A stretch of 64,000 nt of DNA from contig OY282441.1 of assembly GCA_958296105.1 (NCBI GenBank), positions 2,749,800-2,813,799 of the forward strand, given 5' to 3'. The notes beneath the pieces were generated by a model. The model made no database searches, had not been told where the DNA came from, and saw only the letters and a program-made list of their open reading frames with translations. Shown in pieces: positions 17,393 to 22,884 of this stretch. Position 1 is the first letter of the stretch, and each line of letters begins with the position of its first letter. The position numbers and the translations under genes are program-made. The DNA comes from an uncultured Dehalococcoidia bacterium (GTDB lineage Bacteria > Chloroflexota > Dehalococcoidia > Lucifugimonadales > UBA1123).

Positions 17393-19036
17393 CTACCTCG
17401 ACATATGCGCGCTGCTGTCCTTGCCCCCGCGCATTCTGGGGTTCCAGTTGGGGTTGATGACGCTCCAGGGCAGCACGCCGCACCGCTCCGCCCACTCCGC
17501 GTACAGCCTCTCCAGCTCGTCGGACTTGGGCCGATTGCGCCCGCGCAGGTCGTTCAGCTCCGTGCGGTCCTCGTCTATATTGTACAGCTCCCAGCCGCCG
17601 CCGACAGCCGAAACCAGCTTCCATTCGCCCTGCCTCACGGCGCGGCTGCCCTCGTGTTCCCAGAATATGGGGCGTTCGCGCCTCCAGCCGCCTCGTGTGA
17701 TCGCGGGAACGAGGCTCTCCCCTTCCAGCGGCATCGTCTGCTGTCCGGCGCGCTCGGTCGGATGCGCCGCCCCCGCCGCGTCCAGGCAGGTTGGCATGAC
17801 GTCGATCAGGTGGATGGGAGAGTGAACTATGCCCTGCTCCCGGATCCTGGCGGGCCAGCTCATGATGAACGGCGTGGATATGCCGCCCTCGTGCGTCCAG
17901 CGCTTGAATCTGCGGAACGGGGTGTTGGATGCGTTCGCCCAGGGGAGGTCGTAGCTCATAAACGTCTGCGCCCCTCCCGGACGCAGTCCGCGCACGTTTC
18001 CGATCGTAACCGGGGTTCCGTCCGGGTTGGCGCCGCTGTATCTCGAAGGCTGAGGCAGGCTGCTGTCTTCGGCAAGGAATTCGGCGCACCCGCCATTGTC
18101 CGACAGGAACATTATCAATGTGTCTTGTTCTTGCCCGTTGGCGCGAAGCGTGGCGAGTATTCTGCCCACGCCCTGATCCACGCGGTCTATCTGAGCTGCG
18201 TAAACCGCCATGCGGATGTCTTCCCAGTCGTGGTCCGGCGCGTCGCCCCACGGTGGGCTGTCGACGTCTCGCGGGCTGATCTCCCACTTCTCATCCACTA
18301 TCCCCATGCCCTTGAGCCTTTCGTGGCGGCTCGTTCGCAGCTCGTCCCAGCCGCTGCGGTAGCGCCCCTCGTATCGCGCGATGTCCTCTTCCAGCGCGTG
18401 CAGCGGCCAGTGGGGAGCGGTGTAAGCCACGTACATGAAGAACGGGGCATCGCCGTCTGCCGCCTCGCCGATCATCTTGACCGCGCTGTCGCTGATCGCG
18501 TCCGTCAGGTAGAAGTCGTCCATATCGAGAGGAACGAGCGTGTCCTGATCCATGAGCGTCTTGGGGAAGTAGAAGTTGCCCGCGCCCGTCAGTATGCCGA
18601 AGTAGCGGTCGAAGCCGCGCTGTGTGGGGATCGGATTGGTCGGGGCCGATGGCGTCCATGAGTCCGCGTCCGCCAGATTGTAGTCGCCGCCCACGTGCCA
18701 CTTGCCGCACATGAAGGTCGAGTAGCCGCTCGCCTTCAGCGCCTCTGCCACCGTGACCGCGTTCTCGCGCAGGTAGCCTTGATACTCCGTCACACCGAGG
18801 TTCGCCACCATGTGGCCCACCCCCGCCTGATGCGGATTCAGGCCAGTCAGAAGCGCGGCCCTGGATGGACAGCATCGCGCGGAGTTGTACATCTGCGAAA
18901 ACCGCAGCCCTCCCGCCGCGAGCGAATCCAAGTTCGGGGTGCGTATCTCGGAGCCGAAGCATCCGATGTCCGAATAGCCCATGTCATCCACCAGAATGAC
19001 GATGATGTTCGGGCGCTCCGCCCGTGCGTCGGACAT
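17393..19036 (-). CDS. Arylsulfatase-type sulfatase
   Basis: 547 residues, alkaline-phosphatase superfamily. The metal motif VDDMGYSD is near the N terminus and the formylglycine motif C-x-P-S-R is at residues 55-59 (C55-C56-P57-S58-R59), so C55 should be converted to formylglycine by a sulfatase-modifying enzyme not in this window. GKWHVGG and the FLSDNGG metal site are also present. There is no signal peptide, so the substrate should be intracellular or imported; the natural sulfate ester is unknown. GGAGG lies 6 nt before the ATG. Confidence 0.93.
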   Translation of the reverse strand: MSDARAERPNIIVILVDDMGYSDIGCFGSEIRTPNLDSLAAGGLRFSQMYNSARCCPSRAALLTGLNPHQAGVGHMVANLGVTEYQGYLRENAVTVAEALKASGYSTFMCGKWHVGGDYNLADADSWTPSAPTNPIPTQRGFDRYFGILTGAGNFYFPKTLMDQDTLVPLDMDDFYLTDAISDSAVKMIGEAADGDAPFFMYVAYTAPHWPLHALEEDIARYEGRYRSGWDELRTSRHERLKGMGIVDEKWEISPRDVDSPPWGDAPDHDWEDIRMAVYAAQIDRVDQGVGRILATLRANGQEQDTLIMFLSDNGGCAEFLAEDSSLPQPSRYSGANPDGTPVTIGNVRGLRPGGAQTFMSYDLPWANASNTPFRRFKRWTHEGGISTPFIMSWPARIREQGIVHSPIHLIDVMPTCLDAAGAAHPTERAGQQTMPLEGESLVPAITRGGWRRERPIFWEHEGSRAVRQGEWKLVSAVGGGWELYNIDEDRTELNDLRGRNRPKSDELERLYAEWAERCGVLPWSVINPNWNPRMRGGKDSSAHMSR

Positions 19037-19228
19037 GTCTGACCTCCACGCGCTGAATGGACATACTAGGCGGCGTGAGTCTATGCGGGATGCGCGAAAG
19101 GTGTCAAGCGCGTCCAGCGACCTGCCTTCTGCGAGATTGCAATTTTATTGGCGCAGATACCTTCAATGAGATCGAAGCCAGTGGCGTATTTCTTGATATC
19201 TCTGCCCATACTGTTAGAAAATGTGTCT

Positions 19229-19930
19229 ATGACCCTATCAGTAGATATGCAATCCAAAATCGTTGACTTGGCCAACGCGCATTGGACAGAACACGCGCGG
19301 GATCAGAGTTTCGCCGAATTGACAGTGGGAAAGGAGCCTGGACACAGAATCGCCGACTATGTTGACGATAGGACATGCTCTCTTCTGAAGGTAAACCTCG
19401 ATACTCGGTACGAAGGTAATCACAGAGGGCAGGTCAGGAAGCGTTCCATGGGGGATATATGGGTTAGTTCGCACGGGGTGTACAATCCCATCAACGTGAA
19501 AGCTGGTCTCCAAGCCATGAGGGGTCAGCCCAACGTGGTCTCCATGCAAAAACTGCTAGACTACGTATTGAAGCGATGGATTGATTCGTACTATTTGCTC
19601 ATCATCAAGTTCGATTTGTCCACGGCTATTACTCATAGAGTGTACTTTATCGACTTGTTGGACTGGCTCGATTTCATTACTTACGACGCGGGGCCGGGAC
19701 AGATCATGCTCAGGGAACAGGAGTTGTACGACGAGCTGGATGCTGGGCGCGTACCTGAGCATCGAACCATCTTCGAGAAGGTCGAAAGTCTTTTCGTTCT
19801 GTTCGAACGACAACTCCGGGCTTTGTTCGCCAACCGTCAACAAAGACTGGACAGACAACGAGCTATGGCGCAGGAATTTCGACAAGAGGAGTTTATCGTA
19901 GATCAGTCTGAGATGAAGTTTGTGCTATGA
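19229..19930 (+). CDS. Probable type II restriction endonuclease (unassigned family)
   Basis: About 233 residues, first gene of a two-gene unit whose stop overlaps the start of a DNA methylase (ATGA at 19927). I recognise no named family. A PD-(D/E)xK-like core is possible: D in MGDIWVSS followed by INVK, with Asn instead of the usual acidic residue before x-K, and a hydrophobic strand YLLIIKFD after it. The start is uncertain; frames exist from 19148 and 19166, but a TGTTAGAAA box at 19212 sits just before 19229, which would give an almost leaderless mRNA. Base composition is clearly lower in G+C than the neighbours. Nuclease function rests mostly on the pairing. Confidence 0.6.
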   Translation: MTLSVDMQSKIVDLANAHWTEHARDQSFAELTVGKEPGHRIADYVDDRTCSLLKVNLDTRYEGNHRGQVRKRSMGDIWVSSHGVYNPINVKAGLQAMRGQPNVVSMQKLLDYVLKRWIDSYYLLIIKFDLSTAITHRVYFIDLLDWLDFITYDAGPGQIMLREQELYDELDAGRVPEHRTIFEKVESLFVLFERQLRALFANRQQRLDRQRAMAQEFRQEEFIVDQSEMKFVL

Positions 19931-21654
19931 GACTGCGAAAGCATGAGCGTGAGCGCAAACGCCAACGTGGACAGTACATGACGCCTTTGCCACTTGCTCG
20001 GGAGGTCGTGTCAAGGCTGGCAGTCGAGAGTTGCAGCCGCATACTCGAGCCATCCTGCGGAGACGGCGCGTTTCTTGACGCCATTCTTGAAAGACTGTCC
20101 CGTGTTTCTATCCCGAACCTTCACGATGGCGAGATCGAGGTTATTGGCATTGAGATAGATCCTCTGTTGGCGAAGAAGTCGCGCGCCGTCCTCGAAAATC
20201 GCCTGCTCGGTGAATGTTCTTTCAAATTCGAGGTGCGTCAGGCGGATTTTTTCAAGGAGTATCTTTCAGCGTCAGCTTTCGACTACAACACCAATGGTCT
20301 CAACCGCCTCGATCACGAAAGTTTCGATCTCATAGTGGGCAATCCCCCATTTGGCGGCACCTTCGATCACGCAATCGAAGATTTGCTGGATGCTCGTTTA
20401 GGTAATCGTCTCGGCAAGAAGATAAAGAAGGAGACTTACGCCTTCTTCATTGTTGCCTGTCTAGACCTGCTTCGATTAGGTGGGCGTCTGATTTTCGTAT
20501 GCAGCGACACACTTCTCACGATACCTACGATGACAGGTTTGCGCCATCTGCTCATGGAGTACGGCGACGTGAAACTGCATGACATCGAGCGCTTCTCGAG
20601 CGAAACAAGCTATCCCATGACTCTGCTCGATTTCACAAAACGAGGACATCCTGGCCGCGTCACGCGCAATTCCGAAGTGATAACCAGCAGCTTGATTCGC
20701 TCCACCCCTAACCTGTCTTGGGGCATCACGCCGGACTTGGCGAGACTGTTCTCCGGGCCGCTTCTTGGAGATTACTTCGTCGCATCGAGCGGGATGACCA
20801 CGGGTAAGAATGAACTCTTCGTGCGCAAAATTGACGAATGTGACAGGATTATCGAACCATATCATTTTGACTTCTATGACGCCCCCATTACCCTGTCCTA
20901 CGAGTTGGAACGGGCAAGGCTTGGAAAACTGTCCTCCAAGCGCGCTCATGCGTTAAAAACAGCCGAAGCCCGAGGTGAAACGGAGAAACGCCTTAGCGCG
21001 ACTCTGCGGGATGAACCTTTGACAGTGCAGTTGCCGGATCCACGCTACCGTCCATACAACAAGGCGAACAACCGCCTTCTGTTCTCCAATCCGACCCACT
21101 GCATATACTGGGAGAATCAAGGGGAGGCAGTTCTTACCTTTAAGCAGACGGGAAACTGGTATCTGAGAGGCGTCGGCGGACAGCCATATTTCGGTAGAGA
21201 GGGCATCACTTGGCCGCTCGTAGCAACCAGGTTCAATGCAAGATACATTCCTCCGGGCTACATCCTAGACAGCGGAGCGCCTTGCGCCTTTGTGAGAGAT
21301 GGAGTCGATAGGGATGAGATATTCTTCGCCATAGGATGGCTTCTCTCACCTCTTGCCAATCGTGTGCTGAAGGCCGTGATAAACCATACGCGAAACATCC
21401 AAAGCAAAGACTTCGAACGCATGCCGTACCCATGGTGGGTGACTGCTGAAGATAGGGCCGCCGTAGTAAATTCGGTCAAGAATATGATATCGGACGCTTC
21501 CAGTGGCAAGATATGGACATGGGAAAGCGAGCGGATACGACGGGTGGGCGATACGTTCGCGCTGCCTGACAGTGTCGCAATCGCAAATCCATCACTGCCG
21601 CGCCCCCGACCTTCCCCTCCGAAGCAGTTCGAGCTTCGAGGTTTGCCGCGATGA
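19927..21654 (+). CDS. Type II N6-adenine DNA methyltransferase (Eco57I/TaqI-like)
   Basis: 575 residues. Motif X-like RQRGQYMTPLPLAREVV is followed by motif I LEPSCGDGAFL (about 40-50) and the catalytic motif IV N-P-P-F (about 139-142), the gamma-class order. The C-terminal ~330 residues should hold target recognition, including the segment RYRPYNKANNRLLF. It methylates adenine in a recognition site and protects host DNA from the partner upstream (4-nt overlap). The low G+C and isolation between housekeeping genes point to acquisition by transfer. Confidence 0.9.
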   Translation: MRLRKHERERKRQRGQYMTPLPLAREVVSRLAVESCSRILEPSCGDGAFLDAILERLSRVSIPNLHDGEIEVIGIEIDPLLAKKSRAVLENRLLGECSFKFEVRQADFFKEYLSASAFDYNTNGLNRLDHESFDLIVGNPPFGGTFDHAIEDLLDARLGNRLGKKIKKETYAFFIVACLDLLRLGGRLIFVCSDTLLTIPTMTGLRHLLMEYGDVKLHDIERFSSETSYPMTLLDFTKRGHPGRVTRNSEVITSSLIRSTPNLSWGITPDLARLFSGPLLGDYFVASSGMTTGKNELFVRKIDECDRIIEPYHFDFYDAPITLSYELERARLGKLSSKRAHALKTAEARGETEKRLSATLRDEPLTVQLPDPRYRPYNKANNRLLFSNPTHCIYWENQGEAVLTFKQTGNWYLRGVGGQPYFGREGITWPLVATRFNARYIPPGYILDSGAPCAFVRDGVDRDEIFFAIGWLLSPLANRVLKAVINHTRNIQSKDFERMPYPWWVTAEDRAAVVNSVKNMISDASSGKIWTWESERIRRVGDTFALPDSVAIANPSLPRPRPSPPKQFELRGLPR

Positions 21655-21657
21655 GCC

Positions 21658-22884
21658 TCACCCCCCGAATAGCTCCGTCTCTGGGTTCCAGTCCGTCCAC
21701 GCGAACCAGAACGACAGGTGGGAGGGCAGCCTTTCGATTACTCTCCCCTTCAGCTCGCCCTCGATTGCCATGCCGCTGAATGCCATCCAGCGCGAGCCTG
21801 TCTGCTCGTCCACCAAGACTGTCTGGACGCCCGCAGGCTCCCCCTCCAGCCCAAAGCTCAGCTCGCGCCCGTCCACCACGCGGTCGTAGACGAGCGCAGT
21901 ACCGCTCGGCGCGTCGTGATACACCAGCGCGCTCCGCCCGGCGAAGTCGTCGTTGACCACCGAGCGCCTGCTCAGCTCGCTCAGCGGGTAAGCCTTCGTC
22001 TTGCCATCGAAGCTGACGCCAACCACCAGGTCCTTCGTGTTCAGCCGCTCGTCCCTGTTCGCCTCGCCGATGACCCCCGGCTTGCGGCTCGTGTAGTAAG
22101 AGTCGTAGTTGTCCGTGTTGTAGTAGCCCCCGGTGCTGAGGAGCTTGGTATCCGGGTAGAGCTCCTTCCAGCTGCCCCAGTTGGTCTGAGTCAGCGGTAT
22201 CACGTCCAGATCCACGCCGACCAGCTCCCCCCTGACGCCCTTGCTGAGAAACTGGCTCCAGAGCGTCCGCGTCTGGTGGTCGTACATGACCAGCGCGTTC
22301 ATTATCAGCTTGCCGGAGACTCCGAACGTATACTCGCTGCCGTCGATGCTGCGGCTATACCCGATAGCCGAGTAGCACAGCGGTCACCACGTCACCGCCA
22401 CCGGTTCGCCGCCAACCACGTCGTTCACTATCTCGTGCGCGCTGAGCATGGGGACGGAGTAGGCGCGGCTGTCCCCGTCTATGGACAGACCGATCACCAG
22501 ATGATCCGGATCCAGCCACTCGTCAGCCTGCGCCGCGTCCACGAACTCCGGTTCCATGATCGCGCGAATGGCGTCGAACCCGAGCAGCGTCACTATCTCC
22601 AGCTCTTCTATTTCGAGCGTCTCGCCCTCGCCCTCGTCTTTCGGAACACTCTCGCCCGTCGCCGCGACTCGCTCGGCAGTGGCGGCGGGAGGCGGCGCGG
22701 CGGTCCGTGTGGGCGCGGGCGCGGCGGTCGGCCGCGTCTCGGTCGGAGGCGGCGAGGATGTCGCCGGTATGCTGGACGAGGCGCGCTCCGGCGGCGGACT
22801 CGAATCGGAAGCGCATCCCGAAGCGATGGCTGTCAGCAGCGCAAGCCCAATCGCCATCGCGCAGTATCTTCGCAGTATCTTCAT
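21658..22884 (-). CDS. DUF3179 lipoprotein, probable selenoprotein (TGA at 22384-22386 read as Sec)
   Basis: The minus-strand frame from ATG 22884 runs 166 codons, meets one TGA, then stays in the same frame for 241 more codons to a normal stop. Read through, the product is 408 residues, a complete DUF3179 protein: lipobox A-S-G-C, a Pro/Ser/Thr-rich linker, the core with RAYSVPMLSAHEIVND and PVAVTW, then [TGA]-P-L-C-Y-S-A, and the C-terminal half ending SHLSFWFAW. Family members have C-P-L-C here, so the TGA replaces the first Cys of a CxxC. A SECIS-like hairpin follows. GAGGAG lies 9 nt before the ATG. The alternative is a nonsense-mutated pseudogene, less likely because both halves are intact. 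The function of DUF3179 is unknown; a redox role is inferred. Confidence 0.85.
22348..22386 (-). promoter_or_regulatory. Bacterial SECIS-like hairpin of the DUF3179 gene
   Basis: Read from the UGA (22386-22384): a lower stem of 4 bp (22381-22378 with 22351-22348), a 7-nt 5' bulge, an upper stem of 7 perfect pairs (22370-22364 with 22358-22352) and the loop CGGGU (22363-22359). The loop begins 20 nt after the UGA and has G at its second position, which fits the bacterial SECIS pattern for SelB binding. Confidence 0.75.

What the first reader, a model, noticed from the sequence alone, without database searches (positions are those of the whole stretch)
21658..22884. Probable new selenoprotein: DUF3179 lipoprotein with UPLC in place of CPLC
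Seen: one in-frame TGA (22384-22386) separates two halves of an otherwise complete DUF3179 gene, with no frame change and no other stop in 408 codons. The TGA sits between PVAVTW and PLCYSA, where relatives have Cys. A hairpin whose loop starts 20 nt after the TGA and carries G at its second position follows. Known: Sec usually replaces a catalytic Cys in redox motifs such as CxxC. Inference: the first Cys of CPLC is the reactive residue of this family of unknown function, which would make DUF3179 a redox enzyme or thiol/metal-binding protein. I know of no described DUF3179 selenoprotein.
Basis: partly seen in the sequence, partly recalled or inferred. Interest (0 to 1): 0.9.

Follow-up and report, generated by a model that had tools for sequence, protein, structure and literature searches.

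The report
DUF3179 selenoprotein of marine Chloroflexota
A gene that looks broken by a stop codon is in fact intact: the stop is read as the rare amino acid selenocysteine, as published catalogues of bacterial selenoproteins already predict for this family, and a structure model now suggests that the protein is a doubled Rieske-like fold without the iron-sulfur centre.

Summary
On the minus strand (22884 to 21658) lies a 408-codon DUF3179 lipoprotein gene with one in-frame TGA (22384-22386), exactly where homologues have the first Cys of CPLC. The genome carries selA, selB, tRNA-Sec and selD. The TGA sits in the same column in 57 non-identical homologues. All 57 carry the same hairpin, with its loop starting 20 nt after the TGA and G at loop position 2. 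The stem varies by paired changes (98.2% paired, against 86.0% in codon shuffles); 19 Cys homologues lack it. A pseudogene is ruled out; UGA is decoded as Sec with near certainty. The claim of a new selenoprotein family is wrong: reviews list DUF3179 (UxxC/T) as a predicted selenoprotein, citing a 2007 study. Added here: the Sec form is widespread in an order of SAR202-like Chloroflexota, and Sec and Cys were exchanged at least twice. The domain is a tandem duplication whose confident model resembles the Rieske fold in both halves but lacks the four cluster ligands; Sec lies in a hairpin turn of the first half. The likeliest function is an extracytoplasmic Sec/Cys redox enzyme with unknown substrate (inference).

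The parts
21658..22884 (-). Selenoprotein gene, 408 codons, DUF3179 lipoprotein; terminal stop TGA at 21658-21660
22813..22884 (-). Signal peptide with lipobox A-S-G-C (Cys24)
   Evidence: read from the sequence; no signal-peptide program was run
22384..22386 (-). In-frame TGA, codon 167, read as Sec
   Evidence: same column as Cys in 19 homologues and as TGA in 57 non-identical ones
22375..22386 (-). U-P-L-C redox-like motif
   Evidence: Sec/Cys and the second Cys kept in nearly all homologues
22352..22370 (-). bSECIS hairpin: 7-bp stem CGGCUAU/AUAGCCG, loop CGGGU (22359-22363)
   Evidence: constraints of the published bSECIS model met
22129..22518 (-). DUF3179 repeat 1, carries UPLC; Rieske-like fold in the model
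21661..22044 (-). DUF3179 repeat 2, lacks UxxC (D-A-P-S in its place); Rieske-like fold in the model

Best explanation
The gene encodes a full-length DUF3179 lipoprotein in which UGA codon 167 is decoded as selenocysteine by SelB and Sec-tRNA at a bSECIS hairpin that begins 13 nt downstream of the codon. Well supported by comparison: Sec insertion. Inferred: the protein sits outside the cytoplasmic membrane and uses Sec167 as nucleophile with Cys170 as resolving partner in a thiol/selenol redox reaction on an unknown substrate. The site belongs to the first of two duplicated Rieske-like repeats; the second lacks the motif. The confidence given is for Sec insertion; for the redox mechanism it is about 0.6.
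For: Genome has tRNA-Sec (66.2 bits, cut-off 47; ARAGORN SeC tca), SelB 329.7 bits over cut-off, SelD 379 bits, SelA 524 bits. TGA falls exactly on the CPLC Cys column; 19 other homologues have TGC/TGT there. Hairpin at a fixed place in 57 of 57 non-identical sequences, 16 stem variants, 98.2% of stem cells paired, loop position 2 G in 57 of 57; codon shuffles within column and amino acid average 86.0%, maximum 89.7% in 2000; Cys homologues 45.9%, none with 6 of 7 pairs. Homologues of other families of the phylum (L158-L160) have TGA and the hairpin too. Sec and Cys exchanged at least twice. Protein identity after the TGA stays near that before it.
Against: No protein or mRNA data. The single hairpin is not significant by folding energy alone. 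Loop G is also common in Cys homologues (17 of 19), so it is partly set by the encoded peptide. The pair counts are not corrected for ancestry. In the own paralogue L108 six of the stem pairs can form, but the minimum-energy fold differs. A few fragmented genomes with TGA homologues lack a SelB over cut-off (G006, G052, G093), most likely incomplete assemblies. Redox function rests on motif analogy only.
Confidence: 0.96

Rival explanations
1. Pseudogene or sequencing error: the TGA is a genuine stop that truncates the protein.
For: One stop in frame; ordinary ORF calling splits the gene in two.
Against: Same TGA in dozens of genomes at one column, downstream half equally conserved, compensating hairpin changes, full Sec machinery.
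Confidence: 0.01
2. UGA is read through as another amino acid (Trp or Cys) by a suppressor tRNA or a recoded genome.
For: None found; read-through under any decoding gives a full-length protein.
Against: The same gene ends in TGA; homologues use Cys, never Trp, at the column; tRNA-Sec and a bSECIS are present.
Confidence: 0.02
3. Sec is inserted, but UPLC binds a metal ion instead of doing redox chemistry.
For: CxxC-like motifs often bind metals; E61, N64, D65, D112 (domain numbering) are conserved in Sec and Cys forms.
Against: No His is among the conserved residues; exchange of Cys for Sec usually marks a catalytic rather than a structural Cys (established knowledge of selenoproteins).
Confidence: 0.2

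Closest known systems
DUF3179 (PF11376) selenoproteins, UxxC/T, first predicted in the Olavius algarvensis symbiont
   Same: Same Pfam family and same UxxC motif, as listed in PMC9312934 and PMC13188914
   Different: Different phylum (Chloroflexota, SAR202-like); the 2007 paper itself was not held, so the sequences were not compared
Rieske ferredoxins and Rieske domains (PF00355; e.g. 3gce, 3c0d, 8hn2)
   Same: Both repeats match the fold in the models (Z 8.9 and 8.7)
   Different: No profile match; none of the four ligands of the 2Fe-2S cluster in either repeat; UxxC lies in a hairpin turn ahead of box 1
Thioredoxin-fold UxxC selenoenzymes
   Same: N-terminal Sec of a UxxC motif (knowledge of the field)
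   Different: The model is mainly beta and its listed matches are Rieske folds

Membership tests
Bacterial selenoprotein (UGA/Sec) | selA, selB, selC, selD in the same genome | tested here: met
   all over curated cut-offs
Bacterial selenoprotein (UGA/Sec) | In-frame TGA aligned with conserved Cys of homologues | tested here: met
   19 Cys homologues (TGC/TGT) against 57 non-identical main-clade TGA homologues (counted)
Bacterial selenoprotein (UGA/Sec) | bSECIS: loop 3-9 nt, stem 4-16 bp, G in first two loop positions, spacing 16-37 nt, MFE at most -7.5 | tested here: met
   loop 5, stem 7, G at position 2, spacing 20, hairpin MFE -9.7 (model)
Bacterial selenoprotein (UGA/Sec) | Selenium in the protein | not testable with these tools
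   needs 75Se labelling or mass spectrometry
DUF3179 (PF11376) | Profile match over gathering score | tested here: met
   287.7 bits against 27, E 1.4e-85
Rieske iron-sulfur protein | Rieske fold | tested here: inconclusive
   VIA Z 8.9 whole domain and 8.7 repeat 1, the 50 listed rows are Rieske proteins or complexes with one; Foldseek E only 0.018 at prob 1.00 for the whole, 0.43 for repeat 1
Rieske iron-sulfur protein | Cluster ligands CxH ... CxxH | tested here: not met
   no such motif in the sequence; no His among conserved residues
Rieske iron-sulfur protein | PF00355 profile match | tested here: not met
   no hit listed at E up to 10 for either repeat; hhalign probability under 1%
Thioredoxin-fold oxidoreductase | Thioredoxin fold | tested here: inconclusive
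   not among the fold matches listed; absence from a list is no exclusion

The most novel reading that the evidence does not exclude
DUF3179 is a cluster-less, duplicated Rieske-fold protein that has turned the beta3-beta4 hairpin of its first repeat into a Sec/Cys redox site: a selenoenzyme active site on a scaffold otherwise known for iron-sulfur electron transfer.
Probability: 0.4. Interest if true: 0.6.

Novelty: new member of a known kind. Interest (0 to 1): 0.38.

Why it matters
It corrects a gene that ordinary annotation splits in two, and shows that the Sec form of a family of unknown function is widespread in a marine lineage (60 of 98 genomes of the order have a homologue, many with one TGA; 86 have SelB over cut-off). 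The fold hint and the list of residues kept in both Sec and Cys forms give a starting point for finding what DUF3179 does.

Tried and rejected
The 2007 source paper is not held. Conserved operon: none; only a GNAT gene recurs upstream, in 10 of 52 loci, so context gives no function. PDB sequence search: no relative. First idea that UPLC is Rieske box 2 (CxxH): dropped, because start and end of the structural alignments (3dqy 1-94 to repeat-1 residues 15-114; ligand positions) put box 1 near repeat positions 56-64 and box 2 near 75-84, while UPLC is at 45-48. That register is an estimate from ranges; no residue-by-residue structural alignment was available. A search for other stop-split genes in the window found only what look like gene boundaries. 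No paper in the library joins SAR202 with selenoprotein, or Rieske fold with selenocysteine; the two papers with SAR202 and selenocysteine were seen by title only.

Full report
Observation. The gene is on the minus strand, 22884 to 21658. Translation with TGA as U gives 408 residues with U167 and a terminal TGA. Pfam DUF3179 covers residues 104-403 on both sides of the TGA. The start has a lipobox (A-S-G-C24), read by eye.

Machinery. The genome (one contig of 3.18 Mb) holds tRNA-Sec, SelB, SelD, itself with one TGA, and SelA. In 98 genomes of the order, 86 have SelB over cut-off, and 60 have a homologue of this protein, many of them with exactly one TGA.

Column test. In homologues with the TGA it stands between ...TW and PLC, the column where 19 others have TGC or TGT. 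Exceptions: one Ser (L125), one Arg in a broken fragment (L106). Identity to the window protein is similar before and after the TGA.

bSECIS. Among 57 non-identical main-clade TGA sequences, every one has at least 6 of 7 pairs in a stem whose loop begins 20 nt after the TGA. There are 16 stem variants, with changes on both sides at five of seven pairs (three of them in many sequences), and loop position 2 is G in all. Shuffling codons among sequences within one column and amino acid lowers pairing from 98.2% to 86.0% (maximum 89.7% of 2000). Cys homologues pair in 45.9% of cells and none has the stem. Limits: counts are not corrected for ancestry, the loop G is frequent in Cys homologues as well, and the single window hairpin is not significant by energy alone. 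The published bSECIS constraints are all met. Homologues from other families of the phylum (L158-L160) have the TGA and the hairpin at the same place with other bases; the own paralogue L108 has the TGA and can form six of the pairs, though its minimum-energy fold differs.

Tree. With 74 rows, Sec and Cys need at least two changes on well-supported branches; L108 (Sec, own genome) lies within a Cys group. The genome also has a Cys paralogue (L109).

What the protein is. The two halves of the domain align over 125 columns without a gap, 33% identity, probability 99.9; the second half alone matches the first part of PF11376. Only repeat 1 has UPLC. AlphaFold2 gives pLDDT 94.6, pTM 0.91 for the domain and pLDDT 89.1 for repeat 1 alone. 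Against solved structures the listed matches are Rieske proteins: Z 8.9, rmsd 3.2, 96 aligned for the whole (mostly repeat 2), and Z 8.7, rmsd 3.7, 98 aligned for repeat 1. Foldseek alone is weaker, and Z near 8 can mean a common arrangement, so this is a lead and not a proof. Rieske ligands are absent and no profile links the families. UPLC falls, by an estimate from alignment ranges, in the hairpin turn before box 1.

How it works (inference). Residues kept in Sec and Cys forms include E61, N64, D65, U/C77, L79, C80, G98, D112, W119, D188, R190 (domain numbering; add 90 for the full protein), and no His (that set holds some genomes twice). This favours a Sec/Cys redox pair with acidic neighbours over a His-liganded metal site. 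The substrate is unknown, and the gene neighbourhood gives no hint.

Known or new. DUF3179 with UxxC/T is listed as a predicted selenoprotein in PMC9312934 and PMC13188914, credited to a 2007 paper that could not be read. So this is a further member, in another phylum, with strong comparative support.

Noticed in passing
window 19148-21654 (+): A 260-aa ORF without Pfam match followed by an Eco57I-type N6 DNA methyltransferase gene, next to the selenoprotein gene; not among genes recurring beside it in relatives. Possibly an inserted restriction-modification pair.
   Followed up: partly
L127 (G089:C1:2387556-2388440): DUF3179 paralogue with two in-frame TGAs eight codons apart; the first stands where others have Gly, the second at the usual Sec column with a hairpin after it.
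   Followed up: partly
L125 (G089:C1:666552-667487): DUF3179 paralogue with S-P-V-T instead of U/C-P-L-C on a very long branch: may have lost the active site.
   Followed up: no
L045 (G000:C1:539652-540569): SelD of this genome is itself interrupted by one TGA, so probably a selenoprotein.
   Followed up: no
L108 (G000:C1:1176128-1177063): A second TGA-containing DUF3179 paralogue in the same genome, U-T-L-C, inside a Cys clade of the tree.
   Followed up: partly
window 17396-19036 (-): Sulfatase gene (PF00884), found near DUF3179 in a few relatives too.
   Followed up: no
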